This document shows, piece by piece, positions 8,785 to 47,284 of a stretch of DNA of 47,284 bases. The stretch spans positions 1 through 47,284 of the IMG/VR virus record IMGVR_UViG_3300044957_000305. One strand, 5' to 3'. The number at the start of each line of letters is the position of its first letter. Position 1 is the first letter of the stretch. The notes under the pieces were generated by a model that was not told where the DNA came from, made no database searches, and saw only the letters and a list, made by a program, of their open reading frames with translations. The DNA comes from a virus. The translations under genes were made by a program, and so were the position numbers.

Positions 8785-9411
8785 ATGAACTACTTACGAG
8801 AAAACTTGAGTTTTGATCAGGCACGTATAGTGGTCGAAAGTCAAGGAGAGAACGGCAAAGACCTTTATATGAAAGGTATTTGTATTCAGGGAGGTATAAA
8901 AAATGCCAACCAAAGAATATATCCTGTAGACGAAATAGAAAGAGCTGTCAAAACTTTGAACGATCAAATCTCAGGAGGATACAGCGTTCTAGGTGAAGTG
9001 GATCATCCTGATGACCTAAAGATTAATTTGGACAGAGTTAGTCACATGATTACAGAAATGTGGATGGACGGTCCAAATGGTTATGGAAAGTTTAAAATAC
9101 TGCCAACACCCATGGGACAATTAGTAAGAACTATGTTAGAAAGTGGAGTTAAGTTGGGAGTAAGTAGTAGAGGGTCAGGCAATGTCAGTGGAAATGGTAC
9201 TGGCAAAGTCAGTGATTTTGAGATTATCACAGTAGATGTGGTAGCTCAACCCAGTGCCCCAGGAGCTTATCCAACACCAATCTATGAACACTTGATGAAT
9301 AATCGTGGTGGTTATAGAGCCTTACGCATAGCGGAGGAAGTGAAGAAAGATCCTAAGGCGCAGAAGTACATTAAAGAGAGCCTATTATCAGTAATAGGCA
9401 AGCTCCGATAA
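8785..9411 (+). CDS. 21: Prohead core protease (gp21-like, peptidase S77)
   Basis: 208 residues, close to T4 gp21 (212). This serine protease resides in the prohead core and cleaves the scaffold, core and capsid proteins after (L/I)-x-Glu, then itself, before DNA packaging. The catalytic His is seen at residue 74 in GEVDHPDDL, and the nucleophile region in LGVSSRGSG (Ser127/Ser128). DFEIITVDVVAQPSAPGA after it is the conserved strand and loop of the family. The start codon has no clear Shine-Dalgarno but lies 10 bases after the core-protein stop, suggesting coupling. Identity is secure. Confidence 0.95.
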   Translation: MNYLRENLSFDQARIVVESQGENGKDLYMKGICIQGGIKNANQRIYPVDEIERAVKTLNDQISGGYSVLGEVDHPDDLKINLDRVSHMITEMWMDGPNGYGKFKILPTPMGQLVRTMLESGVKLGVSSRGSGNVSGNGTGKVSDFEIITVDVVAQPSAPGAYPTPIYEHLMNNRGGYRALRIAEEVKKDPKAQKYIKESLLSVIGKLR

Positions 9412-31900: not shown

Positions 31901-34900
31901 AGCAACAGGTAGCTTTATAATTCAAGGTGAAGTTATTAGTTATAGTGGTAAGGAGGCGACCAAGTTTACTGGTTGTGTAAGGTCACTGACTAATGCTGTA
32001 GATCTACCTGTAGACGCGGAAATAAAAAGTTTAACAGCAGGTACTGGTCAAGTTGAGACAATTAGTATTCGTGAAAGTGCTGAAAGACTATTTAACTTGT
32101 TTAATCTCATTCTTGAGACGCAGGGTAATGTTCCTGTTAAACAAGGTGGTAGCGGTACATTCTATAATATTACTCCTCCAAGTGCAGGAACAGGTAATGC
32201 ATTTACAGCAGAGATCAAAACAGCTAGAGATAATATCAATAAAGCAAGACAAAGTCTTGAAGATGACTTAATTGATTGGATCACTGCAGAGGTAGGTAAT
32301 GAAAATGGTAATTTTGGTCCACCCTTTAGTTTTGTTGAAGCCTCATGCAGAAATGATATTAAATTAATCTTAGATGCTGTTACTTATGATTTGACGTTTG
32401 GTGGAAATCAGGAAACTATTGTCGCTGGTAAGGCATATTATGATGGTACAGCTTTACAGGATGATGAAAAACTTGCTACAATTGATTCTTATAAAAAATT
32501 AAGAGAGCTAATCACAACTGTAGCCGGAGCAGATGGTGGTAATACTGGTATTGTACAAACATTGATCGATGAATTAATCACATATATTGATCAAAATAGT
32601 GATGATCCAATTGAAATTGAAGCTGATACAAGTTGGGTTGATAGTGAATTGTATGTGTTTAGTGACAAGTTAAAGGCAGAAGCCAATAATGTTGCAGTGA
32701 ACACAACAACATATATTAATGCTAATTATCCAGGTCTTGATTATAATGTAGCTACTTGCCAACGTGATGTCAAATTGATTATTGAAGCTGTCCGTTGGGA
32801 TTTAATGTTTGATAGTAATTTCCGTACTGTAACTGCTGCTCGTAGTTACTATAGAGCGCAAGCATCAACAGTGATAGGTGCTCAGAAAGAAGCTACAATT
32901 GATGCATTTAGGGTAGTTAAAGTAACATTGGATGAGTTCGTTAAGAGTGATAATGTTGCTCAAACTCGTGTAGCAGCATTAATGGATATAGTAGTCAATA
33001 CTTTAGTTGGAGGTGTTGGAGTATTACCAGAATTAAGCTTACCATATGGTGCTACCCCAAATGCTACAGATATTGGATTTTTAAATGCTCGTGATCGAAT
33101 AGAAGAAAATAGACATTTTATTCTTGAAGATATGAGATCATATTTAGAAAACTCAGTAGTTGATGGTGGCCTAGGATTAGGCGATGGGACATCCTTTGAT
33201 GGCAACTTTACTACAGACGAGTGTTTACGTGATGTTAGTTTAATATTAGATGCTGTACGTTATGACCTAACATACGGTGGTAATTTGGAAAGTGTAGTTG
33301 CTGGAAGAGCATATTATGCAGGTACAGTGTTACGTGATACACCAACAAATCAAGCTCATATTGAAGCTACAGAAGCTGCATATACACGTTTAGCAACTGT
33401 TTTAGAATCAGTGGCTACGAATAGTAGTAGGTCAACTCTCCCTGGTTACTCAGGCCCATCTCAAGTTAGATCAAATACAGCAGGTAGCGTTGAAGCTGCT
33501 GCACAAGCTAAGGCTCTTGTAGATACAGTCAAGAGCTATGTTGGTACAAATCTTGATGATGATGTAGCTGAAATAAGACCAAGCACAAGTTGGGTAGATA
33601 ATAATCTTGCACTAATTGCTAGTACAATGCTTGATCGTAAAGCAGAAAGCTTGCCATTACAAGTTACTGATTATATTGACGCTCAATTTCCAGCATTAGT
33701 TTATAATAAAGATACATGTAAGCGTGATATTCAATATGTAGTAGATGCTGTACGTTTTGATATGATGTTTAATACAAATTTCCGTAGTTGGACAGCAGGT
33801 AAAGCCTACTATAGAAATATGACTAGTGCTGCTGTAGTTACAACTACTCAGAAAGTCGCTACATTGGCATCATTTAGATATCTAAAAACTCTTCTTATAG
33901 AGATTGCTGGTAATAATGTTACAGCCGTTAATAGAGTAAAAGGTGCAATGAATGTTGTAATTGATACTCTTGAACAAGGTGAAACAACACGTAATGCTAA
34001 TAATCCTAAGATTGCAGCAGCAGTTGAAGTTATTACAGCTAATAAAGACGTATTGTTAGCCAATATGGAGACATGGTTAGAAGGGCAAGGAACGAGTTTC
34101 ACGGGTTATAACCTTGGTACATGTTTACGTGATCTTGGATACTTAATTGATGCAATATTATATGACTTAACCTATGGTGGTAATATGGAATCATGGGTGG
34201 CTGGTAAAAGTTATTATGGTGGCGCTGTATTAGGAAGTAACGATGATGAGCATGTGGCGTTGACCAAGGCGGCCTTTACAGAATTAGGAAATAAAATTAA
34301 GGATCTAAGTGGAGTTGATTTGTTTGCAGTTGGTCCACGTGTCGATACTTTAATTGCCAATGTCAATGCTCTAATTGATGATGAATCAGTTGCAGAGGTT
34401 TATGCTGATGCAAGTTGGACAGAAGTTGGTCTACAGGAAGTTGCCGTAACAGTAAGAGCACAAACTAACACAATTAAGACACAGGTAACAAATTACATTA
34501 ATACAAACTTCCCAACATTAGTTTATAATCAAGATACTTGCCAACGTGACGTAGGCTTAGTCATTGATGCAGTACGTTGGGATATGTTGTTTAATAGTAA
34601 TTTCCGTAGTATTACTGCGGGACGTAGTTATTGGAGAAGCGTAGCCAATGAAGGTCTGTCACAAGTCGACACTCTTGGTCAAACAGCTAATCAAAAGATT
34701 GCAAGTATCGCAGCATTTACATATCTAAAAGATCTGTTATTGGCTGTTGCCGCAGGTAACAAGCTTGCCCAAGAACGTATTACAAATAATATAGACATCG
34801 TTCTACAAATTCTTGAGACTGGCCTCAGTGACCAAGAAAACCCAACGATTACATACCCAACACCTGTACGTTCAGAAAATGCTAGAAAAGCTAAAGATAT

Positions 34901-37900
34901 ATTATTAGCCAACAAAGCTTTCATTCAAGATGAAATTATAAATTACATTAATAGTAACTTTAATGCTGTATTCTATGATGAAGAAAAATGTGCTCGTGAT
35001 GTGGAATTAATTTCTACAGCAATCGCTTATGATATGGTACAGGATGGTAACTTTAATACAATTAGAGCAGCACAAGGTTATCTCCGTGCTAATGCAAGTA
35101 ATGTATTAACACCACAGCAGAAACATATTACAATATTATCAATGAAATATTTGAAGAATCTACTGACAAATTATGTTGGTGGAAATCCTATTGCTAAGAC
35201 AAGAGTGAAAGAGCTGATTGAAATTGTAATTAATACAATAAACAAGGCGGCTTTAAGTGTAACAGAAATAGACTATGGTACAGCACCAGTTCCAGAGAAG
35301 TGGGATGCTACAAATATTGCAGGTGATTATACTAATGATAGTGTAATTAAGACAATTATTGATGATGTAATATCTTATGTAGAAACACCTGCTGATGGTT
35401 ACACAGTGCCAAATGAATATAACCAAATTAAGTGTAAGCGTGACCTACAGTTTATTTTAGAAGGTCTACGTTATGACTTAACACATGGTGGTAATTGGGC
35501 AAGTGTAGTAAGCGCCCGCAGTTACTATGTAGGTACAGAAAATCAACTTGGTAATAATAGTGGTGAAGTAGCAGCTACACTACGTGCATTTGAATACTTG
35601 AAGACACAGCCAAATCTATTAGCAAGTATTGAGGGTGAGGTAGACGTTGGTACAGTAAATGTTCCTAATATTGTAACAGCAGAAGAGAGAGTAGCGGACC
35701 TAATTGAAATTATTAGGACAGTAATTCAAGATAAAAATGCTATACCAGCAATTGACTATCCAGAGTTATTAGGTAGTGATAATGAACTTGAAGCCGCAAG
35801 AAATGTATTGATCAGTAATGTTGAAAATGCAAAAGCAAAAGTAATTCGTTATACAAATGATCGTGCATATTTTGTTTATGATCCAATTAAGTGTGAGCGT
35901 GATCTAGAATTAATCTTAGATGCTATACACACTGATATTGTTACAAATAGTAATTTCTTAAGTATTCAAGCAGGTCGTTCTTACTTACGCGCAAGTGCAG
36001 AGGATGCCCTTAAAGCAGCGCAGAAGTGGGCAATACTTTCTGGTCTAACACATGCCAAGAGTGTATTAAGTGCTCGAGTTAGCACAAATGCTGAAATGGT
36101 ATCAAGAATCCGTAATAGACTAAGCAATATTATTGATATTATTAATGATGAATCTGACAGCAATGTAGCACTAATTTTGACAAATAGTACAACAACTTAT
36201 TCAGCAGTTAGTGATCGTCAAAATAGTGCTGCTGCTATACAATCAGCAAAGGCTACACTAATTGACGATGTTATAACTAGCGTTGCGGATGTCTTAACAG
36301 ACCCAAATGATGAAAATGCTTGCAGACGTGACCTCAGTTACATCATAGATGCTTTAAGTCACGATGTGTTATACGGTGGTAATTGGGGAGTTACAGTAGC
36401 AGCCAAAGCATATTGGGAAAATGGGCAACTAGCCCTTGGTCCTATCGATAATGAAAGAGTAGCTACACTTGAAGCTCTAGATACCTTAAAAAACTTGATC
36501 AATGCTCTACCTAGTGTAAATTCAGATGCTGAGATTACAGCCCTAATCAGCAGAATTAAAGCAGTTCTTGATAATGCAGATACTGATGGATTTGATGGCG
36601 AGACAGATCTAGAAGAAGCTAATGCTCTAACAATCACAGCCCCAACGCTAACTGGTGCCACACAAGCACATATTGATGCCAATACAACTCTAGTAGCAGC
36701 TAAGGATGCTAGCACATACGATATATTAGATTATATCAATAGCAGAACATATTTAGAATATGATAGTGATAAGTGTCAGCGTGATATAGGAATAATACTT
36801 GATGCACTACGGTTTGATCAAGTAAAAAATAGTAATTTCAAGAGTATTAAAGCAGGTCAGGCATACTTGAGAAGTTATAGTAAAACTGTTATTGAGGAGC
36901 AAAAGCAGGCTACAATTGGGGCTCTGTATTTTGTTAAGAAACAGGTTTCAGAAAACTTATTACAAGCTAATGTTCCTACTGCGGATATTAATTATGTTCG
37001 TAGCTTAATGAATATTATTATTGATATTCTAGATCGCGGTGAAACTGCCATACCAGAAGCAGTTATACCAGCTGAAGGTACAGGATCAACTGCTACAATT
37101 CTTAATAACAAAGACTTCATTAAAGCTGAAGTACGTGCTTATATTGAAATTAACTATCCAGAGTTAGATTATAATAAGATAACATGTGAAAGAGATGTTG
37201 CTTATATCTTAGATGCACTACGTTATGATTTAGCAGTTGGTGGAAATAGTGAAACTATAGAAGCTGGACTAAGTTATTGGGAAGGCAATGCCTTAACATT
37301 AGGTACTGGTACAACAGTGACAAGTACTCTTGTAACAGCTGGTAACTTTGTAATTGGTCAAAAGTATCAAATAGCGACTCTAAGTAGCGGTGGTATCCCA
37401 GTTGATACAGACTTTACGCTGATTGGTGCAAGTAGTAACACGGTTGGAGTAGTGTTTACTGCTACAGGTAATGGTGAAAGCAATGGTAATGGTCAGGCAT
37501 TTTTAGTAGTTGGAGTTGAAGAACAAAAATTAGCAACAGTGGGTGCATATGCATTCTTAGCTGATCTTGTTAAGTCTCTCTTAGACAATAATTATTCTGT
37601 ACAACAGCAAAGCGTAGTTAAGAAAGGTGTTTATGTTGGTACCCCAGATAGTCTATCATTAACAGCTAAGACATTAATAACTAATATTAAGAATATAGTT
37701 AATAGTGAAAATTTTGCTGCTGCTCAAGCACTTGCTAATAATACTATTGGCATAGTCTTACCTGGAATAGGTACAAGTTTAGTTAATACTACAATTGTTG
37801 CTGCTACAACCAATTTACCAGGTGAAACAACAACTGAGATTAACAAGGCTTTCATCAATTCAAGTACAGGATTATTTGTTGCTGGTAGTGCTGATAATGT

Positions 37901-39086
37901 TCAGTTCTTCGTATATAATCAAGATAAGTGCTCACGTGATGTTGGTTTTGTGATAGATGCTCTAGCATTTGATTTATTCTTCGGTGGTAATAAGGAAACT
38001 AGAGAAGCAGCACTACAGTATGCATACAAGGGCGGTCTAGTGATTCCTTTAGCAACTAAGGTACCAACTGTTGGTGGCTTTACAAGACTTAAGAATATTA
38101 TGGTTCCTATAGTTACAGGACAGGCTATTACACGTTCAATCGGTTTCGATGAAGATTTAGACCAAGAGACAGAAGGACCATCAAATACTGAGTTTGGTAA
38201 TGACGCACGAAATAAGGTACAGATTGTAATTGATGTACTAAATGGTAAAGGTGCTCCAGTGCTAGTTGAGCCAGATGCAATAGCTAACAAGACTGCTGAT
38301 CTGGAGTATTTGGCAATTCGTGAACTTGTTAAAGATAGTGTTTCAACTATTGCTAGCCAGACAATCAAATTCATAAATGAAACTTATGCAGGATTTGGTT
38401 ACGAACAAGATACTTGTAAGCGTGATATAGGTTTAACATTAGATGCTGTAGCTTATGACTTGATCTATGGTGGTAATAGTAGAACTAAGTTTGCTGCTGA
38501 ACAGTATTATAGTGGTGGTCGATTCCAGATTCCAGCAGATAGTAAGAGTGCTACAGTGGCTTGCTTTGTTTACTTGGATGCTCTAATTAGAAAAGTAATT
38601 AAGAATGAACCTATTGTAACATTCCAAAATTATGTAGATCAAAATAAGAGTAATCAACAAGCTACAGATAGTGAAGTGTTAAATGTTGCAAGTCTAATGG
38701 ATGCATATACTGATATTTTATCAAATGGTTATATCAGTGTACTACAACTTGATGCAACATTTAATGGTAGTGTAGATGATAATACGTTTGCTACGTTCCA
38801 CCAAGTTAGTACAATTACTACAACTGGTCACACATTGGAGTGGGTTGGAACTGGTATTGATGTAGATAGTGCTTTACCATACAACGGCGGTGTGCCAAAA
38901 CCAGAGAATCAATTGGTTAGTGAAAGAGGAGGATTTATCAACTTCACTAGTACAGATGAAAAAGGTGACTTTAGAATTGGTCCAGACTTAACAATTAAGC
39001 GTGACTCAGGTAGTATTGTAGGTAGAGCATTTAATAAGAGCTTGTTAGGAGTAATTACACCATACATCCTAGCACTCCAAGGTTAA
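19998..39086 (+). CDS. Giant tail-fibre-like protein, 6362 residues, beta-helix plus about 34 C-RD repeats
   Basis: A single uninterrupted frame of 19,089 bases. The N-terminus (IRFKRSDIPGKIPSLDSIDL, then GELAINTADGKLFTK) is a standard phage-fibre head domain. Residues about 65-300 form a pectate-lyase-like beta-helix with VLYVAKNGDDSNSGRT, RVSIVGDNLRNTTVRP and YNQGGIGIYMLNRGNTQLVS, a module conserved in marine T4-like fibres. From about residue 314 to 6170 there are 34 copies of a mostly helical unit with consensus (K/T)C-x-RD-(V/I)G-x-x-(L/I)-DA-x-x-(Y/F)D, then either YGGN-x-(E)T or (F)NSNFRS, and an AT-x-(A/S)(F/Y)-x-x-LK helix. Inserted small beta domains break the array at several points. 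The C-terminus (HTLEWVGTGIDVDSALPYNG, FTSTDEKGDFRIGPD, FNKSLLGVITPYILALQG) matches the conserved end of shorter marine fibre proteins, so the gene is complete. No enzyme site seen. Confidence 0.88.
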   Translation: MSTNIRFKRSDIPGKIPSLDSIDLGELAINTADGKLFTKQEVKAGAGVAAIQKIIEIGASEVPNVLYVAKNGDDSNSGRTLGQAFLTLKKALSISTPGTTIFLKSGEYIEDNPLRVPARVSIVGDNLRNTTVRPKNVTKDIFWVYNGAYIFCMNFKGHIAPSAAVCFPPDGSAGEIVTSPYTQAVTSITTTGTGMRVDGAVTTGLRSMVCDAFTQYNQGGIGIYMLNRGNTQLVSIFTICCDISFMCENGGFCSVNLSNSSFGNFGLVSRGASEPLYRGVVKKSAGRQITFKNLAKRPNIGDGVLFADYNQVTCNRDNGLVVDGLAFDLLYEGTTQSTFAGLRYWKKDNLITPIEQLAPTVAAIKRAQIVAKGVIAGTNGTIAGQVLPGTLSIQPGNSTAQRLAGEAFGIVAAIVENGPTSPSLIVGPDLDAAEPEYKTLRETVLDRQSQIVDQTIDFLTKNYPRLPYSKSKCMRDLSLVISAIADDMILGTNYRTIKAALSYLSSTTSLGYTIPSDQRDATREAFKFARDKIVPIIQEDATLLARVQANFTIIDETLVRGASYITDITSVGSSDDNKLSYPILQDTDLTVKNLVNNLQANKDFIKAEVNDYVKKNWPAVVAYGYNEETCKRDIGFALDAICYDILYGGNSQTLDAAKRYFNYASGLTELRSSEEVPATVDAFGRVQLLSQRVVILDPIVKQQVEVFQVFDNLIATTQTQVNRLGGLFSIFLKQLETDIVATSDFIQPNGSRTDDNNLEYAYTLLQANKAAIKTDVINYLARAFPAFNYDKVKCARDVGYIVDSVCFDLVHGGNRQSVQAGIYYYDFNEESNVLKSVLPNQIKQTVNAYKYMKEVLRDVLTCSPVPNPWQGVVPQRIDLPAATGSEVVAVSNLIDIINEILIEGPNNTEDSIQRIKQPIALTASGDINKQRAFNLLMANRQFIQAEMLAFINQNWFVISDGDTSFARVNTATELTLGTTTTGFPTVTYQPASLKAIRDAVLAAKEEIKAETIKFMANSFFDNFSFNKPKCYRDVGLILDAILSDMVFDSNYKTITAAISYLRAYSSEVLGAQKVQTIAALEAAKKITLARIVTPAAKTEISTRFDIILDILEKETGDGYTVTFPIPAKNSEEDIDHYTAVNILRDNIDFIKKEIVAYIDANFTLNEFDREKCNRDTGLIIDALGYDLMFISNFRSISAGRAYLRANAKTVQGSQKLATLGAFRHLKKLAVAIVKSNSLAVNSIQSNMDIILDILDKGESAVPKFMIPFPEKGRSIGFKRARDLVQKNREFIVDEVLTYVNTPGLELLRGTVTHQINPITNQFFTDGSFYQEVATNANLNTLVVGDLVRISGKLFGTSTIGGYANPSTYKVSVVTTGTGPGVQFQKFKLVNLDGTALVTTPGTTGKTTSMRFEVIKTGTYAVPTGFDFDKCRRDLNLILDAVFYDTTYGGTLESVIAAKSYFVGAVSQLNPSGNAEDEVAATIRAYELLRTVIKEVAEDNLWVPTVGNTTSQVRSPNGSDGSEEAAREMGTCIDFILNVLRDDSTIEVNLDTQATQPDISWVDPKARAAYDALQAVKFDTEEAVSDFVDENYVLFGYDRAKCARDVGNVIEAVRFDMMFNSNFRSIVAGRSYYRAVASTVVKDQKPATLASFQFLKGKLLEIVKAVDPDNPTADESASIQRVSRSMDIILDILENGLTAEPAFIRPEATGTGVRSQAVLTLRNNIESKRDDIEDDLIEWIDDQIENNPAYEDVEYDETACRRDVEYILDALYYDLTYGGNLETRVAAQAYYAAADDNIPLALGSDEIQLTLAAYAQLKVIIDGYTDAPVVPSNTLIDLIIDYINTGILDAQDIPDISWVNLGIRTFNTKLSEASVVSRLKQQVTDFVDLNFAYNKEKCARDVGFLIDALCYDILYGGNVETTQAATAYFDGAVTPKSTIPKQIIQTVAAYERLKDVVSNVVQLKDVLPSTNSFTAKQRLESSMDLIIDIVANGEKNTPPRPYIMPLPTVVPNVTNNASVRGYLNARNNISANREFIKAETIDHIDSQVNPPNYNKVKCERDIDLLLDAILYDLTYGGNAATRIASAAYYDASETLGTGEVVATTDAYTVMANIIESVALGELIAPTKQNRVVQVVGNSVEVETSGAHTTAKNLVLEIVVRTVDVKNSTELQTGSSFTIVALGTNVNWNAAGVGVTPAVGTVFTATGSTTTGSGGKVIRTVQAAVAPSTLWVDTTLTEINAFINAAWIAEVKNKVNLIFNPTAPGAVNQFPSINYTGALRSSCEEDIDDIILAVRFDMLFGSNFRSQVAGRAYFRAITGAQNVLATQKDASLAVFQLVKDQFADLVATAVPEQVKAGKAGNVTAAAAAAALVQNIIAFIDNDLDDPNEVEANTAWVDPDLVVLSTTLEDSKNGENGVANIPVSITTYINDRFPELDYSRDDCQEDIRSITDAVRFDMMFGGNFRTISAARAYFRAVAAKAVGVQKIATLESFRLLKEKLTDFVKTNATALDRVSASMDLLIRIVDKGPKAIPQFVVPSPSNYNGTFLHTFGYARNLIETNRDFLKNEVLKWISVNRPTLDFKEDKCLQDLDFILDAIYYDMTYGGNMETIIAGGAYYRGSRANDLSLPQRPTIDGDDVEATIAAYGYLKELIEKVAQGQDVSQLQIVIKQVGGEPGSIGGAQTAKNLAYVVRNLINNTGTYAVQAPTFVVPDISWVELELKTPNDLIELYKTSDAGSGGYLGRSSVQSKLTQWITIQQELADPIAPTASTLVQTGPLAGTTVLRVGSFTDWYKVNNNSLVVVNATQLTVGKKYKILSANGSAFTSVGAASNNIGVVFTATGASAGGTGTVHEMYTYNVDKCERDIGLVMDAVRYDMMFGTNFRTRTAAISYWRQQANNALFSGSTENSTYPQKNVSKFLFTYMKELLQTLPTTVPKAGAPSIPGISPGTARTRIGALMDLVIGMFDSSVENFAQATETLPAKPYSLPLPSGGTNNSRDLGFRAARDLIEINRDFIKAEVLSWIDDQKRENRDGFVTPFNFNRTECAEDLDLILDAVYYDMTYGGNMESYTAGLAYYSGVTSVNASLGQDEREATIRAYNYMGQLLFNVARSILNKSYQVAIEQVKGTSGSAETAKKLGELVDIVINVVKGGTKQLPPKIDPDFLSGDETLAYVRIAVQEQKFELQARIADYIDAFILQYNTEKCARDVGLILDAAMFDLVLNSNFQSITAGSVYLQKAAQVVTSTQIGPQLQAIKFIRDQVIAISQKPPLVKNEQAIGRITNLFDVMFDIIDKGVEVAPEIVNVPPQGAAFNQFAINAANSIIANKEFLKEEAVAYITANYKTYDQSRCTRDVGLIIDAVLYDLLLDTNYNSVKAGISYRRATSSLVITDQLQETLGAIDFVKKKVVDLIDDANAIASVTRSFELISSIIGGGSVPTTNIPSPGGSVYALPRPSGILVRDKAFQVAAAKLLESAEQTEIKGLVRDWILSQISDASEGSIWDGFTYTGDRQTACEEDIGFVLNAVAYDLTYGGNMETVSAGRAYYAGAANASLQEAAEIPTTLATYTYLSELVKARLEQAGVTAQVQTEAENLVLQVRNLVDSAANSVARVRLPDQSWADPLTQEISAFLVDDKPRLQDVIIDYVNNIATYTDNELQTPANYDQDKCRRDVGLVLDAVRYDLMFGTNFRTISAGRSYARSFAEVITTSQQAANRNAFVELKERVLGKKLTGVKRGANNGTFTCDDPFTIDTTPLFVGQSVRVSGVYGVGNTVTLGNYANLASQPKTYFIVDTNDRTTFTLSETVDGLPIATTGAEDAVPLGLTFEIRPSVEPLDTVITQGLLDVVTLTANNQNTPLVVGREYKIKSTGTQTVTAGGFIIGGRYKITAVNSTNFTNVGAEENTIGVEFTATGAGTGTGTATFITDYSLYGAADNTVGTVFRATQTTIATTKLTAAASDQATELTVDSTAQFPATGSFIIQGEVISYSGKEATKFTGCVRSLTNAVDLPVDAEIKSLTAGTGQVETISIRESAERLFNLFNLILETQGNVPVKQGGSGTFYNITPPSAGTGNAFTAEIKTARDNINKARQSLEDDLIDWITAEVGNENGNFGPPFSFVEASCRNDIKLILDAVTYDLTFGGNQETIVAGKAYYDGTALQDDEKLATIDSYKKLRELITTVAGADGGNTGIVQTLIDELITYIDQNSDDPIEIEADTSWVDSELYVFSDKLKAEANNVAVNTTTYINANYPGLDYNVATCQRDVKLIIEAVRWDLMFDSNFRTVTAARSYYRAQASTVIGAQKEATIDAFRVVKVTLDEFVKSDNVAQTRVAALMDIVVNTLVGGVGVLPELSLPYGATPNATDIGFLNARDRIEENRHFILEDMRSYLENSVVDGGLGLGDGTSFDGNFTTDECLRDVSLILDAVRYDLTYGGNLESVVAGRAYYAGTVLRDTPTNQAHIEATEAAYTRLATVLESVATNSSRSTLPGYSGPSQVRSNTAGSVEAAAQAKALVDTVKSYVGTNLDDDVAEIRPSTSWVDNNLALIASTMLDRKAESLPLQVTDYIDAQFPALVYNKDTCKRDIQYVVDAVRFDMMFNTNFRSWTAGKAYYRNMTSAAVVTTTQKVATLASFRYLKTLLIEIAGNNVTAVNRVKGAMNVVIDTLEQGETTRNANNPKIAAAVEVITANKDVLLANMETWLEGQGTSFTGYNLGTCLRDLGYLIDAILYDLTYGGNMESWVAGKSYYGGAVLGSNDDEHVALTKAAFTELGNKIKDLSGVDLFAVGPRVDTLIANVNALIDDESVAEVYADASWTEVGLQEVAVTVRAQTNTIKTQVTNYINTNFPTLVYNQDTCQRDVGLVIDAVRWDMLFNSNFRSITAGRSYWRSVANEGLSQVDTLGQTANQKIASIAAFTYLKDLLLAVAAGNKLAQERITNNIDIVLQILETGLSDQENPTITYPTPVRSENARKAKDILLANKAFIQDEIINYINSNFNAVFYDEEKCARDVELISTAIAYDMVQDGNFNTIRAAQGYLRANASNVLTPQQKHITILSMKYLKNLLTNYVGGNPIAKTRVKELIEIVINTINKAALSVTEIDYGTAPVPEKWDATNIAGDYTNDSVIKTIIDDVISYVETPADGYTVPNEYNQIKCKRDLQFILEGLRYDLTHGGNWASVVSARSYYVGTENQLGNNSGEVAATLRAFEYLKTQPNLLASIEGEVDVGTVNVPNIVTAEERVADLIEIIRTVIQDKNAIPAIDYPELLGSDNELEAARNVLISNVENAKAKVIRYTNDRAYFVYDPIKCERDLELILDAIHTDIVTNSNFLSIQAGRSYLRASAEDALKAAQKWAILSGLTHAKSVLSARVSTNAEMVSRIRNRLSNIIDIINDESDSNVALILTNSTTTYSAVSDRQNSAAAIQSAKATLIDDVITSVADVLTDPNDENACRRDLSYIIDALSHDVLYGGNWGVTVAAKAYWENGQLALGPIDNERVATLEALDTLKNLINALPSVNSDAEITALISRIKAVLDNADTDGFDGETDLEEANALTITAPTLTGATQAHIDANTTLVAAKDASTYDILDYINSRTYLEYDSDKCQRDIGIILDALRFDQVKNSNFKSIKAGQAYLRSYSKTVIEEQKQATIGALYFVKKQVSENLLQANVPTADINYVRSLMNIIIDILDRGETAIPEAVIPAEGTGSTATILNNKDFIKAEVRAYIEINYPELDYNKITCERDVAYILDALRYDLAVGGNSETIEAGLSYWEGNALTLGTGTTVTSTLVTAGNFVIGQKYQIATLSSGGIPVDTDFTLIGASSNTVGVVFTATGNGESNGNGQAFLVVGVEEQKLATVGAYAFLADLVKSLLDNNYSVQQQSVVKKGVYVGTPDSLSLTAKTLITNIKNIVNSENFAAAQALANNTIGIVLPGIGTSLVNTTIVAATTNLPGETTTEINKAFINSSTGLFVAGSADNVQFFVYNQDKCSRDVGFVIDALAFDLFFGGNKETREAALQYAYKGGLVIPLATKVPTVGGFTRLKNIMVPIVTGQAITRSIGFDEDLDQETEGPSNTEFGNDARNKVQIVIDVLNGKGAPVLVEPDAIANKTADLEYLAIRELVKDSVSTIASQTIKFINETYAGFGYEQDTCKRDIGLTLDAVAYDLIYGGNSRTKFAAEQYYSGGRFQIPADSKSATVACFVYLDALIRKVIKNEPIVTFQNYVDQNKSNQQATDSEVLNVASLMDAYTDILSNGYISVLQLDATFNGSVDDNTFATFHQVSTITTTGHTLEWVGTGIDVDSALPYNGGVPKPENQLVSERGGFINFTSTDEKGDFRIGPDLTIKRDSGSIVGRAFNKSLLGVITPYILALQG
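26509..26640 (+). other. Inserted FTATG domain, copy 1 in the giant gene
   Basis: Encodes SSFTIVALGTNVNWNAAG and VGTVFTATGSTTTGSGG. It is a short beta domain common in aquatic phage fibres, interrupting the spacer between C-RD repeats. Confidence 0.75.
28396..28545 (+). other. Inserted FTATG domain, copy 2 in the giant gene
   Basis: Encodes VNATQLTVGKKYKILSANGS and GVVFTATGASAGGTGTV, directly before a C-RD repeat of the FGTNFRT type. Confidence 0.78.
31540..31815 (+). other. Inserted FTATG domains, copies 3 and 3b in the giant gene
   Basis: Encodes a partial first copy (LVVGREYKIKSTGTQ) nested around a full one (GGFIIGGRYKITAVNSTNF, GVEFTATGAGTGTGTA), followed by a remnant tail (NTVGTVFRATQ). 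The arrangement looks as if one domain was inserted inside another. Confidence 0.72.
37336..37515 (+). other. Inserted FTATG domain, copy 4 in the giant gene
   Basis: Encodes TAGNFVIGQKYQIATLSSGG and GASSNTVGVVFTATGNGE. It lengthens the spacing between two C-RD units from the usual 400-490 bases to about 745. Confidence 0.78.
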
Positions 39087-40663: not shown

Positions 40664-42778
40664 ATGGCTGCACAACAACGAGTAGAACTCTTTAGTGGCC
40701 GAGTTAAAAAGATTAAGCCTGATAAAGTCAGTGAACACCGCTACGATTTTTTAAAACTAAGTGAAGCAGAACCAGACCTTGGCGTTCCAGAAACAACTGA
40801 TAGTGCAGATGTTAGACGTATACTATTAACTGATAAGAATGGTAAACGCTATTGGAGCGATACTGTACAAATTGATGATAATGGTGATTTACAGAGCAGC
40901 GGTCAAATACAGGCTGATGCGTTTCACACTGACCGTTTAGAAGTAACCGACAATGGAATAAACGCTAGATTTGGCAATGAGGATATAAACTTAACTACAA
41001 ATGGCAACTTACAAACTACAGGACTGGTTAAATTTGATACAGCAATGGGCGTAAAAATAGGTAATCCAGACCAGCCAGGATTGATTAGTAGAGCAGTAGC
41101 AATGAATACAGCCACACCTATATCAAGAGGAATGGCACAAATGAATTTTATATTAGGTAAACTAGTGCCTAAACCACCGCCAAATTTCCCTAAACTTAAA
41201 AATGGCATCAGTCAAATATTAAGTATACAAGGGGTATCAAGTTTTAGGATGTGTGATTTTGTTCAAACTGATAATACTCCTAGTCAAAATAAATCAGTAG
41301 GTGGTGGTACTATTGTTAATGTAGTGCGTAGAAGCAATACTTATACAACAAATACTATTCAAGACTGCGGTCCAGGTGATAGAGGAAGCATTACAGTGTA
41401 TAAAAATGGAGTAGCTAGTGGCAACAAGGAATTAACAAATATTCTACAAGAAAGTGATGATGAAAATAGTCCTTTGTATTTGTTGGGAATAGATAATGGT
41501 ACCTATGATGATTTGGTTATAACCGACGATAAAGATTTTTCTAAAATTGCTGTACCGGCTATAAGCCCATTATTTTGGCAAAGTTTTGATGCATCAGCAA
41601 CTGGAACTGTTTTTTCAGGTTGGAATGAAGTTTATATTGAACATAATAATTTATTTCCAGAAACTGTGCCAGCAACTACAGGTACTACTAATACAGCAGT
41701 TTGGTACTATGATGCAAGTACACCTGGTAGTCCAGTATTCAGTAATGTTACATTTGAACCATCAGATAATGTGACTTTGAGCTATAGTAGTGGGATTCCT
41801 CATTATTCAAGTGCTACAGTTTTTACTTTAGGATTTGATATAGGAAAACTGAGTGGTGATATGTATCCCACTAGTGATACATTCATTACCAGCGTAGGAG
41901 GTGGCGCATTTGGTGTACCTACACCAATTACATACGCAGATGCCAATATAACTACTCCATTGCCACGTAATTATTTGAGCACTACAACTATTTCACTAAC
42001 AACAAGTGTAAGGATAAAAACAGGTGTGGGCAGCAGCTCTGGTAATGTAAGTTTGACTGCACTCAATAGTTATGGATCAACACAACAGGCATTCACACCA
42101 AGTGGTATTGTATTATTTAAAACTGGCACAAGTAATATTAATACTATTGAAGAAACTAATATTGCCGCTGCTGCTACATTTGGTAGTGGAAGCTCAAATG
42201 CTTATCGTATTGTAAGCCTAGGTATTGGAGATACACCTAGCTTTACAAGTAATGCTGTGGCTTTTAATAGTGTATCAAGTAGTATAGAAACTTATGATGC
42301 TGTGGTTGTTGGACAAGGAAATCAAGCAGTGCTTAAGCACGATGCTACAGATTATAGTACAGGATTTTTGCCATCTGGGCCTAATAGAAGTGGTCAAGGA
42401 ACAGATCAATATTTTAATTTTGCCTTAAAAAGAAGTGCTGTAAGTAAATTTAATATAAACATAACAGGAATTTTAAGAGGATTATGGGTGGCAGTTCCTG
42501 GTGGTATAGGAACAAATAATGGATTAAATGGATGGTTAAGAATGGATCAAGCCTATGCTGGTAGCGGTATTCCAGGTGCTGGTACAGGTGGTAATGGATC
42601 AAATGGCTGTAGTATTGGTGGTGTGGTTACATTAGACAGTAATGTTACTCAAAGCAGAACATGTACTTTTGGTACTCTCAGTACAAGTAATACAGTCACT
42701 AACGAAATTTATATAAGAATAAAACTACTGCCAGGTGATGTTATTACAGCTTTAAGTTTATCAGGAGCAACCAACTGA
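40664..42778 (+). CDS. Tail fibre protein, copy 2 of duplicated cassette
   Basis: 704 residues. Its N-terminal domain (MAAQQRVELFSGRVKKI, FLKLSEAEPDL, LLTDKNGKRYWSD) is shared with the 331-residue protein just upstream. From about residue 130 onward it is paralogous to the 911-residue protein at 15207: a KIGNPDQPGL / LGDPEYGIL pair, a GDRGSITV(Y)-K / GNRGTITVK pair, GIPHYSS, EETNIA, LKHDATDYSTGFLPSGPNRS, and a closing NGCSIGGVV with IRIKL. It therefore looks like a chimera: the C-terminal domain of copy 1 joined to a different attachment domain. AAAGGAGG lies 12 bases before the ATG. Its stop shares one base with the next ATG. Confidence 0.85.
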   Translation: MAAQQRVELFSGRVKKIKPDKVSEHRYDFLKLSEAEPDLGVPETTDSADVRRILLTDKNGKRYWSDTVQIDDNGDLQSSGQIQADAFHTDRLEVTDNGINARFGNEDINLTTNGNLQTTGLVKFDTAMGVKIGNPDQPGLISRAVAMNTATPISRGMAQMNFILGKLVPKPPPNFPKLKNGISQILSIQGVSSFRMCDFVQTDNTPSQNKSVGGGTIVNVVRRSNTYTTNTIQDCGPGDRGSITVYKNGVASGNKELTNILQESDDENSPLYLLGIDNGTYDDLVITDDKDFSKIAVPAISPLFWQSFDASATGTVFSGWNEVYIEHNNLFPETVPATTGTTNTAVWYYDASTPGSPVFSNVTFEPSDNVTLSYSSGIPHYSSATVFTLGFDIGKLSGDMYPTSDTFITSVGGGAFGVPTPITYADANITTPLPRNYLSTTTISLTTSVRIKTGVGSSSGNVSLTALNSYGSTQQAFTPSGIVLFKTGTSNINTIEETNIAAAATFGSGSSNAYRIVSLGIGDTPSFTSNAVAFNSVSSSIETYDAVVVGQGNQAVLKHDATDYSTGFLPSGPNRSGQGTDQYFNFALKRSAVSKFNINITGILRGLWVAVPGGIGTNNGLNGWLRMDQAYAGSGIPGAGTGGNGSNGCSIGGVVTLDSNVTQSRTCTFGTLSTSNTVTNEIYIRIKLLPGDVITALSLSGATN

Positions 42779-44169
42779 TGGCAATTGTTGATAAACAAAA
42801 AGTTGATCTATTATATAAGAAGCTTTTTGGTGTATCTAAGACTGACTTCAATACACTTAAGGGCGCTAGTAACGAAGTTATACCAAGTCCCGCATTGATA
42901 CGTGGTGATACAATTTGGACACAGTCAAATCTTATTATACAAGCGCCTGCCGAACCTGCCGCTGTAGATAATATTGTTGAATATATCCTAGTAGAATGTG
43001 TACCAGATAATACCACTACTCCAATTAACGGTGTATTCCCAACGTGGATAGCTAAAACTGTAGAGGACCCTCCTGTAGAATATAAAAATTGGATTTCACC
43101 AGAATTTGGCCCTGGGTATCTAATTGAAGTATATATAGGTGATCCAAATAGTAATGGTATTAGAATATTTGATGCTGGTATAAATGATAAGGGTGCTTAC
43201 TACTTTGACTATATGTCTGGTGTGCTAAACTTTACAAATTATTTAGATAATGGTAATAACAGTAATGTATTACCTAATGAATTAAGTGGCAATAACATTT
43301 GGATAAGAGGTTATAGATATATTGGATTTGTTGGTATCAGTGATCAACAAGATGGCAAATTTGGTAACTTACAGCTCAGTAGAAATACTGTACAAGCTAT
43401 AAACAAAGATATTGACGATAATCCAGTTACTGGTGACGTAATACTTAGACCACAATTAGTAAATGGTGTGGCTCGTATTCAAGGTAGTCAGTTTAGTCAA
43501 CACTTATTTACAAGTGGTATTGCAGAATTTAATACAGCATACGCCAAAACAAGTTTATTGGCTACAAGAGAAACACTTAATGGGACTTGGGAAGAATTAA
43601 CATTAGATGGTTTAGCACCAGGACTTACTAATAGGATCTTTTTAGAGAATAATTATACCTATAAAATTAGAACAGAAATAACAGGTAAGTTAGTTGGCGG
43701 CACAGATAGTGCCATTTGGAATTTACAATTTTTAGCACAAAGAGGAGCAAATGCATCTACTACATCAATAATTGGAAGTACTTTAACAGAAAAAGTTGCA
43801 GGATCCTCACAAACAACAGTTACTATATTAATAGTTAACGCTGGTAATTTTGTAAATGGAAATATCTATAAAATTAAAACATTAGGTAATACAGATTGGG
43901 CTAGTATAGCAGAAAACTATGCTATGGACTTTGAAGTAGGCACTGTTTTTACAGCCACTGGAGAAGGTAGTGGTACTGGGGATGCTTATTTGTACTTGAC
44001 ACCACAACAAAGTTTAGATTTAAGTTGGAGTGTGAAGGCAGAAGCAGATACAACTAACGGTTTAATACAGATTATGGTTAAAGGTCCTGATAAAGTTGAT
44101 CCAGGAGATGCCAATAAAAACATTAAATGGTTTGCAGCGATAAATATATTGGAAATCTACCAGATTTAA
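42778..44169 (+). CDS. Tail fibre protein, copy 2 of the KVDLL family
   Basis: 463 residues, start overlapping the previous stop by one base (TGATG). The first 190 residues match the N-terminus of the protein at 17955 (QKVDLLYKKLFGVSKTDF, SNEVIPSPALIRGDTIW, VECVPDNTT, WISPEFG, YYFDYMSGVLNF, GYRYIGFVG). The DxDGD beta-helix of copy 1 is missing. Instead there is a beta-sandwich-like C-terminal region with LATRETLNGTWEELTL and a single inserted FTATG domain (GNFVNGNIYKIKTLG to VFTATGEGSGTGDAY, about 43831-43990). The end, WFAAINILEIYQI, is a typical closing strand. Together with the 704-residue gene it repeats the order of the 15207/17955 pair. Confidence 0.85.
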   Translation: MAIVDKQKVDLLYKKLFGVSKTDFNTLKGASNEVIPSPALIRGDTIWTQSNLIIQAPAEPAAVDNIVEYILVECVPDNTTTPINGVFPTWIAKTVEDPPVEYKNWISPEFGPGYLIEVYIGDPNSNGIRIFDAGINDKGAYYFDYMSGVLNFTNYLDNGNNSNVLPNELSGNNIWIRGYRYIGFVGISDQQDGKFGNLQLSRNTVQAINKDIDDNPVTGDVILRPQLVNGVARIQGSQFSQHLFTSGIAEFNTAYAKTSLLATRETLNGTWEELTLDGLAPGLTNRIFLENNYTYKIRTEITGKLVGGTDSAIWNLQFLAQRGANASTTSIIGSTLTEKVAGSSQTTVTILIVNAGNFVNGNIYKIKTLGNTDWASIAENYAMDFEVGTVFTATGEGSGTGDAYLYLTPQQSLDLSWSVKAEADTTNGLIQIMVKGPDKVDPGDANKNIKWFAAINILEIYQI

Positions 44170-44178
44170 GGGACAGTA

Positions 44179-44439
44179 ATGGCTTTGGCATTAAACATTG
44201 GTTTTAATACTGAAAACGTAGTTTTTTACTACGTTGATATGCCTACAACTCTTAAATTTGATTATACCAAAAAAATTTTTAAGAATATTTTTTACTGTCA
44301 GCCTGTAAAATTTGATGTCATTAGCAATGTAACCAATTCATCAGCAATTATTAGAAAGCTATTTTCTTCAATGACATATTGGCATAAAGATCATATCCAT
44401 AAAAATTTTTTAGGCCAAAGTTGTAGAAGAAATAAATGA
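44179..44439 (+). CDS. Small protein of unknown function coupled to the collagen-like gene
   Basis: 86 residues, starting 9 bases after the previous stop, with a short AAGGGA before the ATG. The sequence ([20 protein letters not shown] and onward) is rich in Phe, Tyr, Asn and Lys, with no recognised domain; the C-terminal third is basic with three His residues. Its stop codon overlaps the start of the collagen-like gene (ATGA, 44436-44439), a typical translational coupling, which argues that it is real. It could be a fibre chaperone or attachment factor; no evidence chooses. Confidence 0.55.
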
Positions 44440-47284
44440 GCGTATTAAAAAGATATATCCAAGGTGTACAAGGTCTCCAGGATGGATGGCGTGCCATTAT
44501 GGTTGGAGAACGTGGGCTTCAGGGTAGTCAAGGTACTCAAGGCTCCAGTGCCACAGGTGGTAGTTTTGTACATGGTCAAAATATTCCAGCTGATACTTGG
44601 TACGTTAATCACAACTTAGGTATAAAATATGTAACCGTACAAATCTACGACGATAATGATGAAAGTGTAGATTTAGGTAAGCCAGATAGTCCATATATTG
44701 AAGCTGTTGATGCAGGTAATTTAATTGTTTACTGGGGCGCAAATAATCTCCAAACTGGTAAAATTGCTGTAATTAGTGGTGGCGGTATACAAGGTATACA
44801 GGGTATACAGGGTCAACAAGGTATACAAGGTAATTTTGGTCCAATAGGTGTGCAAGGTCGTCTAGGTAATCAAGGTATCCAAGGTATTCAAGGTCTTGGA
44901 TTTAATTGGCGTGGTGACTGGAATGTAGCTACAGAGTATAGGTTTAACGACGTAGTATTCTACGATGGTGGTAGTTGGGTAGCTAAACAGGCTAATCAAG
45001 GACAGGCTGCTCCCGATATAGCTAGTGCTTTTTGGGACTTAATGACAGCCCAAGGTCCACAAGGTATACAAGGTATACAAGGACGTCTAGGACCACAAGG
45101 TACGCAAGGCCCACAAGGTGCACAAGGTGCACAAGGTAATTTAGGTAGTCAAGGTAATCAAGGTACCCAAGGTATTCAAGGCCGTGGTATTATATGGAAA
45201 GGATTTTGGGATGTAGCTACTGAATACTTTATTGGTGATATGGTATACTACAACGGTGGTAGCTGGGTCAGTAAAATTGGTGGCGAAGGCCCAATAAACA
45301 TTGGTAATCGACCTGATTTTGGTAGTGCATATTGGGATCAATCCACCGCCCAAGGTTTACAAGGTGTACAAGGCGTACAAGGTGTACAGGGTGTACAGGG
45401 TGTACAAGGCGTGCAAGGCGTGCAAGGTGTACAGGGTGTACAGGGTGTACAAGGTGTACAGGGTGTCCAAGGCGTACAGGGTGTACAAGGTGTACAAGGT
45501 GTCCAAGGTGTACAAGGTGTACAGGGCGTTCAAGGAGTGCAAGGCGTACAAGGTGTACAGGGTGTACAAGGTGTACAAGGCGTCCAGGGTGTACAAGGGG
45601 TCCAAGGTGTACAAGGGGTTCAAGGCGTACAAGGTGTACAAGGTGTACAAGGTGTACAAGGCGTACAGGGTGTACAGGGTGTACAGGGTGTACAAGGTGT
45701 GCAAGGTGTACAGGGCGTTCAAGGCGTACAGGGTGTACAAGGTGTACAGGGCGTTCAAGGAGTTCAAGGCGTACAAGGTGTACAGGGCGTACAAGGTGTA
45801 CAAGGTATTCAAGGTGTAGGCTTTATTTGGCGTGGTCCTTGGAACTTTAATACACTATATCAAAAAAATCATACTGTTGGGTATGCTGGATTTAGTTTTG
45901 TAAGTTTAGAACATAATAACATTGGAAATGATCCATTTGAAACACTGGGTGTTTGGTGGGATATTATTGCTGCTCAAGGTGTTCAGGGTGTACAAGGCGT
46001 ACAAGGCGTACAGGGTGTACAGGGTGTACAGGGTGTACAAGGTGTGCAAGGTGTACAGGGCGTTCAAGGCGTACAGGGTGTACAAGGTGTACAGGGGGTA
46101 CAAGGTGTACAGGGCGTTCAAGGTGTACAGGGGGTACAGGGTGTACAAGGTGTACAAGGTGTACAAGGTGTACAAGGTGTACAAGGCGTTCAGGGTGTAC
46201 AAGGCGTTCAAGGTGTACAGGGTGTACAGGGTGTACAGGGTGTACAAGGCGTTCAGGGTGTACAAGGCGTTCAGGGTGTACAGGGCGTTCAAGGTGTCCA
46301 GGGTGTCCAGGGTGTACAAGGTGTACAAGGTGTACAGGGTGTACAGGGTGTACAAGGCGTCCAGGGTGTTCAAGGCGTACAAGGTATACAAGGTTTTGGT
46401 ATTATATGGCGTGGAATGTATAATTTTAACACCAGATATTATCAAAATGAGGTAGTTTTTTATAATGGCTCAAGTTGGATAGTAGTCTATACTGGTGTTG
46501 ATGGTGTAACACCTGGGAGAGAAGATCCAACAACTGTACCTGGACCAGAATATAATGACACATATTGGGAATTATTAGCAAGCCAAGGTATTCAAGGTAT
46601 ACAGGGTGTACAAGGCGTACAGGGCGTTCAAGGTGTACAGGGGGTACAGGGTGTACAAGGTGTACAAGGTGTACAAGGCGTTCAGGGTGTACAAGGTGTA
46701 CAAGGTGTACAAGGTGTACAAGGTGTACAGGGAGTACAAGGTGTACAGGGTGTACAAGGTGTACAAGGTGTACAAGGCGTTCAGGGAGTACAGGGAGTAC
46801 AAGGTGTACAGGGAGTACAAGGTGTACAGGGCGTTCAAGGAGTGCAAGGCGTACAAGGTGTACAGGGTGTACAAGGCGTACAAGGCGTTCAAGGTGTACA
46901 AGGCGTACAAGGTGTACAAGGTGTACAGGGTGTACAGGGCGTTCAAGGTGTACAGGGTGTACAAGGTGTTCAAGGTGTACAAGGCGTTCAGGGTGTACAA
47001 GGCGTTCAAGGCGTTCAAGGTGTACAGGGAGTACAAGGTGTACAGGGCGTTCAAGGTGTACAGGGTGTACAGGGTGTACAAGGTGTTCAAGGTGTACAGG
47101 GCGTACAAGGTGTACAAGGCGTTCAGGGTGTACAGGGTGTCCAAGGTGTACAAGGTGTACAAGGGGTACAGGGGCTACAAGGTGTGCAAGGCGTACAGGG
47201 TGTACAAGGTGTGCAAGGTGTGCAAGGTGTACAAGGTGTGCAAGGCGTTCAAGGTGTGCAAGGTGTACAGGGTGTACAAGGTGT
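44436..47284 (+). CDS. Collagen-like GVQ-repeat fibre protein with carbohydrate-binding-like modules, 3' partial
   Basis: The frame beginning [20 protein letters not shown] is open for 949 codons and runs off the window. Residues about 48-115 ([34 protein letters not shown]) form a phage-fibre beta domain. Short mixed Gly-x-Gln stretches follow, then three long arrays of Gly-Val-Gln triplets (45354-45818, 45978-46394, 46587 to the end). Between them lie four similar modules of about 50 residues (44901, 45189, 45822, 46401). They have the plan (I)W(R/K)G-x-(W/Y)-(N/D)-x-x-T-x-Y-x-x-x-(D/E)-x-V-x-(Y)-x-G-x-S(W/F) and a closing (Y/W)W(D/E)L, as in CBM5/12-type chitin-binding folds. The role inferred is an extended trimeric adhesin whose rods carry sugar-binding beads. 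Open frames in other phases of the array are artefacts of its 9-base period. Confidence 0.88.
45354..45818 (+). repeat. GVQ array 1 (about 51 triplets, 9-bp period)
   Basis: Units of the form GGN-GTN-CA(A/G), nearly all Gly-Val-Gln, with one Leu at the first unit and one Ile near the end. Codons for all three residues vary from unit to unit. It contains a 98-base stretch (45654-45751) identical to 45999-46096 in array 2. Confidence 0.95.
45978..46394 (+). repeat. GVQ array 2 (about 46 triplets, 9-bp period)
   Basis: Same unit as array 1, ending with one Gly-Ile-Gln before the FGIIWRG module. It shares 98 exact bases with array 1 (offset 345), and 46107-46168 equals 46617-46678 in array 3 (offset 510). 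Confidence 0.95.
46587..47284 (+). repeat. GVQ array 3 (at least 77 triplets, continues past the window)
   Basis: Begins with two Gly-Ile-Gln units and then Gly-Val-Gln, with a single Leu near 47172. It is the longest array and is cut by the end of the window. Confidence 0.95.

What the first reader, a model, noticed from the sequence alone, without database searches (positions are those of the whole stretch)
45354..47284. Almost pure, proline-free Gly-Val-Gln collagen-like arrays
More than 170 triplets are visible and nearly every one is GVQ, with no Pro at all. Classical collagen-like phage fibres use Pro and mixed residues. Codons vary freely (GGT/GGC/GGG/GGA, GTA/GTT/GTG/GTC, CAA/CAG), so the amino-acid pattern is held by selection, not merely by fresh DNA slippage. 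A proline-free G-x-y rod may form a collagen triplex stabilised by Gln, or a polyglycine-II bundle.
Basis: partly seen in the sequence, partly recalled or inferred. Interest (0 to 1): 0.72.

Follow-up and report, generated by a model that had tools for sequence, protein, structure and literature searches.

The report
Giant proline-free collagen-like phage fibre
An uncultured large phage carries the start of a giant fibre gene in which nearly pure Gly-Val-Gln repeats, a collagen-like pattern without collagen's usual proline, alternate with small sugar-binding-type modules; near-complete relatives run to about 6,000 amino acids, which would be about a micrometre long if folded like collagen.

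Summary
Window 44436->47284 is one reading frame, cut by the contig end. It holds three arrays (45354-45821, 45978-46400, 46587-end) with 176 triplets, 168 of them GVQ and none with Pro. Codon differences from the commonest codons are 170 synonymous to 9 replacing, against an expected synonymous share of about 30%. Forty-six short GVQ-coding repeats in bacterial genomes do not show this bias. So the peptide is under purifying selection, although unit types have also spread by block duplication. The arrays alternate with ~50-60-residue CBM5/12-type (chitin-binding fold) modules. Full-length relatives in IMG/VR are 6,003-6,482 aa with ~30 collagen-like blocks and 1,190-1,440 triplets, nominally 1.0-1.2 micrometres as a triple helix. 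Across eight records, 5,049 in-array triplets depart from consensus 0 times at Gly, 1,187 at X and 8 at Y (Gln). Best explanation: a giant beads-on-a-string homotrimeric virion fibre of a jumbo T4-superfamily phage, with Pro-free Gly-X-Gln rods and glycan-binding beads. Collagen-like fibres and CBM modules are each known in phages; the composition and scale are an unusual variant. The triple helix and sugar binding are inferred, not shown.

The parts
44436..47284 (+). Giant collagen-like fibre gene, 5' part only (949 codons; open at the contig end)
   Evidence: ORF list; PF01391 Collagen E 7e-94; PHROG 5073 tail fibre E 1e-31; orthologues 66% identical over residues 1-305
44436..44504 (+). Conserved N-terminal leader MSVLKRY(I/F)QGVQG.QDGWR, likely attachment end
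   Evidence: Invariant or near-invariant in orthologues
44505..44549 (+). Short collagen-like block of 5 triplets
   Evidence: Same length in the five orthologues with an N-terminus (WIN, G001, G002, G003, G007)
44550..44783 (+). N-terminal beta domain (W.(I/V).HNLG type)
   Evidence: AlphaFold2 pLDDT about 90 over residues 41-110; similar stretch in other phage fibre-like ORFs; Foldseek hits to phage fibres weak and not significant
44784..44900 (+). Mixed collagen-like block, 13 triplets
   Evidence: Length 13 in the five orthologues with an N-terminus
44901..45053 (+). CBM5/12-type module 1
   Evidence: Pfam PF02839; profile of 43 modules hits chitinase A1 chitin-binding domain 1ED7 E 2.5e-5; AlphaFold2 pLDDT 87.7, Foldseek prob 1.0 to CBM5/12 domains
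45054..45188 (+). Mixed collagen-like block, 15 triplets
   Evidence: Length 15 in the five orthologues with an N-terminus
45189..45353 (+). CBM5/12-type module 2
   Evidence: PF02839 weak match; aligned with module 1
45354..45821 (+). GVQ array 1, 52 triplets, 49 GVQ
45822..45977 (+). CBM5/12-type module 3 (divergent)
   Evidence: Alignment of 43 modules; weak PHROG 5073 hit
45978..46400 (+). GVQ array 2, 47 triplets, 45 GVQ
46401..46586 (+). CBM5/12-type module 4
   Evidence: Alignment; PHROG 5073 E 9e-9
46587..47284 (+). GVQ array 3, 77 complete triplets to the contig end, 74 GVQ; continues beyond the window
42778..44169 (+). Upstream structural gene (PHROG 9417; related to genes annotated as tail protein in Caulobacter jumbo phages)

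Best explanation
This is the N-terminal ~15% of a giant beads-on-a-string virion fibre (most likely a tail or host-recognition fibre) of a jumbo T4-superfamily phage. Three identical chains are proposed to form collagen-like triple-helical rods from nearly pure Gly-Val-Gln, interrupted every 10-130 triplets by a small CBM5/12-fold module. The rods are spacers: Gly at every third position allows tight packing, Val and occasionally Ile/Leu fill X, and an almost invariant Gln at Y replaces Pro or hydroxyproline as the helix-supporting residue (probably through side-chain to backbone hydrogen bonds), helped by rod length and cool habitat. The modules act as hinges and as many weak glycan-binding sites, giving a very long flexible line that can catch host surface or extracellular polysaccharide by avidity before the baseplate engages. 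In full-length relatives the C-terminus changes to ordinary collagen-like triplets with Pro and Thr plus a short conserved tail, a plausible site for chain registration. Array lengths drift by unequal recombination or slippage in whole triplets while selection holds the peptide. Shown: gene structure, selection, module fold family, relatives and their length. Inferred: trimer, triple helix, sugar binding, tail location, habitat temperature, function.
For: Collagen Pfam match E 7e-94. 5,049 in-array triplets from eight records depart 0 times at Gly, 1,187 at X, 8 at Y, with a scoring rule in which any one position could fail equally. Synonymous:replacement codon differences 170:9; near-neutral bacterial control. 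CBM5/12: 35 of 43 modules match PF02839, 1ED7 E 2.5e-5, AlphaFold2 pLDDT 87.7, Foldseek to chitin-binding domains at 1.2 A rmsd and to cyanophage A-1(L) tail fibre 8kec at TM 0.74. Full-length relatives of 6,249, 6,003 and 6,482 aa with 29, 30 and 32 collagen blocks. The assemblies agree between metagenomes: 9,576 bases identical except two 36-base indels, and a separate 3,747-base overlap fully identical. Setting: portal gene at 4495, prohead protease at 8785, capsid gene at 10482; in relatives the fibre gene is followed within about 10 kb by a head-tail adaptor gene, which resembles the host recognition cluster described in pelagimyophages (PMC7029224).
Against: No structure or biochemistry of any (GVQ)n peptide was found. 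Val at X and the absence of imino acids should lower triple-helix stability (general knowledge), so a partly disordered chain is possible. A fibre of 1 micrometre would be several times longer than a virion. Array lengths come from metagenome assemblies and may be collapsed or expanded. Sugar binding is not shown; in phage A-1(L) a neck-fibre carbohydrate-binding module did not bind the host (PMC10966104). All four window modules fall below the PF02839 cut-off when searched alone (two weak, two undetected); only the whole ORF passes it, narrowly.
Confidence: 0.62

Rival explanations
1. The GVQ arrays are not triple helices but bundles of polyglycine-II (PPII) helices, as in the Salmonella phage S16 long tail fibre adhesin or springtail antifreeze proteins.
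For: Gly at every third residue is compatible with PPII bundles. Non-twisting PPII helices, including S16 6F45 and snow flea antifreeze 2PNE, are discussed together with collagen in PMC11869133. Gln side chains could make inter-helix ladders.
Against: Unbroken arrays of up to 130 triplets with no turn or cap residues give no place for an antiparallel bundle to fold back. The arrays join directly to mixed collagen-like blocks and to Pro-containing collagen-like C-termini. Family matches are to collagen.
Confidence: 0.13
2. The arrays are flexible, largely disordered elastomeric or entropic linkers between glycan-binding modules.
For: No Pro, a beta-branched X residue, and array lengths that vary freely between relatives, as expected of spacers.
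Against: Selection allows X to vary in 24% of triplets but never Gly (0 of 5,049) and almost never Gln (8 of 5,049). A linker would tolerate Gly and Gln changes.
Confidence: 0.2
3. The arrays are minisatellite expansions carried by DNA slippage, with no protein-level function for the GVQ motif.
For: Period-9 DNA arrays; shared runs of identical units; 36-base indels between otherwise identical records. Short GVQ-coding 9-base repeats exist in many bacterial genomes.
Against: Synonymous excess 170:9, unlike the bacterial minisatellites (149:107). Long open frames of about 18 kb, with array lengths that differ between relatives but stay in frame.
Confidence: 0.03
4. The contig-end array is an assembly artefact (collapsed or chimeric repeat).
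For: The contig ends inside the array, a typical assembly break.
Against: Relatives from other metagenomes continue through many such arrays in one frame and agree base for base.
Confidence: 0.02

Closest known systems
Phage and prophage collagen-like fibre proteins (e.g. EPclPs of E. coli O157 prophages, PMC3368898)
   Same: Gly-X-Y repeats in virion fibre genes, Pfam PF01391
   Different: EPclPs have 48% Pro at X and 31% Lys/Arg at Y, with Gln 14.5% at Y; here Pro at X is 0.6% and Gln at Y 96% (G001), and the chain is about 6,000 residues
CBM5/12 (type-3 chitin-binding domain; chitinase A1 1ED7, S. griseus ChiC 2D49)
   Same: Sequence profile and predicted fold
   Different: Present as 20-30 beads inside a collagen-like fibre; ligand unknown
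Anabaena myophage A-1(L) tail fibre (8ke9/8kec)
   Same: A phage tail fibre containing the same module fold
   Different: 258-274 A fibres, no collagen mentioned
Salmonella phage S16 long tail fibre adhesin (6F45), polyglycine-II sandwich
   Same: Gly-rich PPII helices in a phage fibre (PMC11869133)
   Different: Described as a polyglycine-rich host-recognition domain; no long array of fixed G-X-Q triplets is known to me there, and no family link was found here
Host recognition cluster of pelagimyophages and cyanomyophages
   Same: Fibre genes with collagen repeats and glycosyltransferases close to neck genes (PMC7029224)
   Different: No GVQ giant found in the passages read; the capsid here is nearest to Phosso / Vibrio 2.275.O / PA5oct jumbo phages

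Membership tests
Collagen-like (PF01391) phage fibre | Uninterrupted Gly-X-Y periodicity | tested here: met
   0 Gly departures in 5,049 triplets
Collagen-like (PF01391) phage fibre | Pfam score above gathering cut-off | tested here: met
   308 bits against 27.2
Collagen-like (PF01391) phage fibre | Lies in virion structural gene cluster | tested here: met
   Portal, prohead protease, capsid upstream; head-tail adaptor downstream in relatives
Collagen-like (PF01391) phage fibre | Imino-acid-rich (typical, not strictly defining) | tested here: not met
   No Pro in the window GVQ arrays; 4 of 209 X positions over the whole ORF
Collagen-like (PF01391) phage fibre | Trimeric triple helix | not testable with these tools
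   Only monomer prediction was available; no solved Pro-free (GVQ)n structure stood out among the PDB sequence matches
CBM5/12 | Sequence profile | tested here: met
   Whole ORF 27.5 bits against cut-off 26.2, single window modules below it; 35 of 43 modules match at E <= 0.01
CBM5/12 | Three-dimensional fold | tested here: met
   AlphaFold2 model; Foldseek prob 1.0, 1.2 A rmsd over 42-44 residues to chitin-binding domains, though E-values are 0.01-0.1 for so small a domain
CBM5/12 | Carbohydrate binding | not testable with these tools
   No ligand data
Polyglycine-II bundle (S16 adhesin type) | Several Gly-rich PPII strands with turns or caps folded against each other | tested here: inconclusive
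   No turn residues inside arrays of up to 130 triplets, but the fold was not determined
Legionella Lcl / streptococcal Scl adhesins (NCBIfam) | Score above family cut-off | tested here: not met
   NF046116 373 against 500 and NF038329 263 against 325: composition only

The most novel reading that the evidence does not exclude
Aquatic jumbo phages use a proline-independent collagen code, Gly-(Val/Ile/X)-Gln with Gln virtually fixed at Y, to build micrometre-long homotrimeric fibres studded with dozens of glycan-binding modules: the longest and least proline-dependent collagen-like rods known in any virus.
Probability: 0.45. Interest if true: 0.8.

Novelty: new variant of a known kind. Interest (0 to 1): 0.6.

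Why it matters
If these arrays form triple helices, they show that a natural collagen can dispense with proline almost completely, using Gln at Y, length and modest temperature. That makes a long-standing question (what besides imino acids stabilises bacterial and viral collagens) testable with one short, chemically simple repeat. It would also mean that some uncultured jumbo phages carry fibres far longer than their own virions, which would change ideas about how such phages find hosts. Proline-free, hydroxylation-free collagen is also of interest as a recombinant biomaterial.

Tried and rejected
tblastn of the non-repeat part against 50,697 phage records found nothing at 1e-5 and nothing convincing for the N-terminal domain at E<=1, so no cultured phage with this gene was found; low-complexity filtering hides the arrays themselves. 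The cultured phages nearest by capsid protein (Phosso, Vibrio 2.275.O) were read downstream of the capsid gene and carry no such gene there. A search for phage-encoded Gln/Val/Gly tRNAs as a sign of translational demand: G002 has a broad tRNA set including them, and none was found in the first 80 kb of G001, so no specific link. A possible 9-triplet step in array lengths was seen by eye in distal arrays and not pursued: the proximal arrays do not follow it. Structure of the N-terminal domain: good local confidence, no significant PDB match. An iterated profile of the N-terminus drifted into collagen repeats and was used only to pick orthologues. Literature searches for proline-free or Gly-X-Gln collagens and for giant collagen phage fibres gave nothing direct. 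PDB 8zxl/9ius 'spindlefibril', the best sequence match to the array, is a Pro-containing GAPGSQGAPGLQ repeat and was set aside.

Full report
What is there. The window is a 47,284-base virus record with no end repeats. It carries a T4-type structural cluster: portal (PHROG 213), prohead protease (PF03420) and a major capsid protein whose nearest cultured relatives are the jumbo phages Phosso (71%), Vibrio 2.275.O and PA5oct. The finding lies in the last gene, ORF 44436->47284, which runs off the contig end. The ORF is continuous through three 9-base arrays and the modules between them. In the arrays 168 of 176 triplets are GVQ, and away from array ends 163 of 164 are.

Is the pattern selected? 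Against the commonest codons, 170 codon differences are synonymous and 9 change the residue. Random single changes would be synonymous 27-35% of the time, depending on transition bias (P below 1e-65). These differences are not independent, because unit types have been copied: GGC is linked to GTT, and arrays 1 and 2 share a run of 10 identical units. A conservative count of distinct unit types (21 coding GVQ, 7 not) still gives P between 4e-7 and 3e-5. An external control supports this. A scan of 84,980 bacterial and archaeal genomes for six GVQ codons in a row gives 47 stretches. All but one (46 arrays) are short repeats in unrelated contexts, in which third-position and first-plus-second-position differences are 149:107; in the window they are 174:10 (Fisher P 1e-19). 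The control is itself biased towards third-position changes, because six exact GVQ units were demanded, so the contrast is conservative.

The larger object. Relatives in IMG/VR carry the same N-terminus and architecture. Reading the frames in contigs of 183, 400 and 160 kb gives proteins of 6,249, 6,003 and 6,482 residues (stop-to-stop frames, a few residues before the start Met included) with 29, 30 and 32 collagen-like blocks and 1,438, 1,199 and 1,192 triplets. At 0.286 nm per residue (textbook collagen rise) these would be 1.23, 1.03 and 1.02 micrometres of triple helix. The first three block lengths (5, 13, 15 triplets) are the same in the five orthologues whose N-terminus was read (WIN, G001, G002, G003, G007), while the GVQ blocks vary freely. 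Proximal blocks are nearly pure GVQ; distal ones mix GIQ, GGQ, GQQ, GTQ and GDQ but keep Gln. The C-terminus turns into ordinary collagen-like triplets with Pro and Thr (GLPGPQGATG...) and ends in a short conserved tail. In 5,049 in-array triplets from eight records there are 0 departures at Gly, 1,187 at X and 8 at Y. Two records from different metagenomes agree over 9,576 bases except for two 36-base indels, and another pair over 3,747 bases without a difference, so the arrays are not assembly noise, although exact lengths may be off.

The beads. The 50-65-residue segments between blocks (W(R/K)G.W....Y..ND.V.YNG.S......P....YW....SQ) align. Of 43 scanned, 35 match CBM_5_12. A profile of them finds the chitin-binding domain of chitinase A1, chitin deacetylases, an Anabaena contractile injection system protein and the tail fibre of cyanophage A-1(L). 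AlphaFold2 gives pLDDT 87.7, and Foldseek returns the same set with probability 1.0, though with E-values of 0.01-0.1 for so small a domain. Distal parts of relatives also hold 120-160-residue insertions of other kinds. An N-terminal beta domain (residues 41-116) is predicted with good confidence but matches nothing solved at a significant level.

Surroundings. In G001 and G002 the fibre gene is followed by an 840-946-aa structural gene, then by a DUF4422 protein, a TPR protein and a family-2 glycosyltransferase, and then by sheath-stabiliser and head-tail adaptor genes. This resembles the host recognition cluster described for pelagimyophages and cyanomyophages, which holds fibres and glycosyltransferases next to a neck gene (PMC7029224). 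Fibre glycosylation is possible but untested.

How it most likely works. Shown: the gene structure, purifying selection on Gly and Gln, the CBM5/12 fold family of the beads, giant full-length relatives and their place among virion genes. Inferred: three chains wind into collagen-like rods; Gln at Y substitutes for imino acids; the beads act as hinges and weak sugar-binding sites; and the whole works as a long line that catches polysaccharide-coated hosts. The main rivals are a polyglycine-II bundle and a disordered spacer. The strict asymmetry between positions (Gly never lost, X free, Gln nearly fixed) argues against a mere spacer. The absence of turns in arrays of up to 130 triplets, and the direct joining to ordinary collagen-like sequence, argue against a folded-back bundle. 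None of this shows a triple helix.

Compared with what is known. Collagen-like phage fibres and CBM modules in phage fibres are both known. Published viral collagens average about 22% Pro at X and 13% Gln at Y (PMC3368898 Table 4); G001 has 0.6% and 96%. Among 79 IMG/VR relatives the median is 2.4% Pro at X and 77% Gln at Y, so low proline with Gln at Y is a habit of this wider group, with GVQ as its extreme. That set was collected with query patterns that partly contain Gln, so the median may be biased. No paper describing such a code or fibre length was found in the library searched, which lacks most subscription journals. The verdict is a new variant of a known kind, with interest resting on the untested but simple question of whether a proline-free (GVQ)n triple helix exists.

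Noticed in passing
window 19998-39086: A 6,362-aa ORF just upstream, with a DUF1565 (pectin-lyase-like) hit near the N-terminus and many ~100-aa repeats of the type 'KC.RD.g.i.dA...D...g.n..t..a...Y'. The same C-terminal region is upstream of the fibre gene in G006 and G009, so these phages carry two giant genes almost side by side.
   Followed up: partly
window 18802-19736: A 378-base tandem duplication inside ORF 17955-19934 (repeats of DVDGDVNIDG type).
   Followed up: no
window 3640-3962: A 96-base repeat, 3.3 copies, in a 1,493-aa coiled-coil-like ORF open at the left contig end.
   Followed up: no
L167:4773-7551 (-) and L133:9425-12200 (+): In both long relatives the fibre gene is followed by a DUF4422 protein, a TPR protein whose second half looks like a FkbM-type methyltransferase by eye, and a family-2 glycosyltransferase: possibly fibre glycosylation.
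   Followed up: partly
L133:6532-9372 and L167:7604-10126: The gene directly after the giant fibre codes an 840-946-aa virion protein whose last ~150 residues look C1q/TNF-like by eye; Pfam finds nothing.
   Followed up: no
L190 (RFSW01000116.1): A contig binned as a Betaproteobacteria MAG is a piece of this phage fibre gene (147 GVQ, four CBM-like modules): probably phage DNA placed in the bin.
   Followed up: partly
L184-L230: Short 9-base minisatellites that happen to code GVQ occur in many bacterial genomes (46 arrays, 461 units), often within or beside unrelated genes; a useful neutral control.
   Followed up: yes
G012 (L159-L160): A different 5,850-aa protein with 1,097 Gly-X-Y triplets (GVQ, GTQ, GAQ, GTT), another N-terminus, and no module of this kind seen in the parts read: giant Pro-poor collagen-like proteins may have arisen more than once.
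   Followed up: partly
distal arrays of G001, G002, G005, G011: Array lengths near 15-16, 24-25, 33-34, 42-43 and 51-53 triplets recur, as if stepping by 9 triplets; two records differ by 4-triplet (36-base) indels.
   Followed up: no
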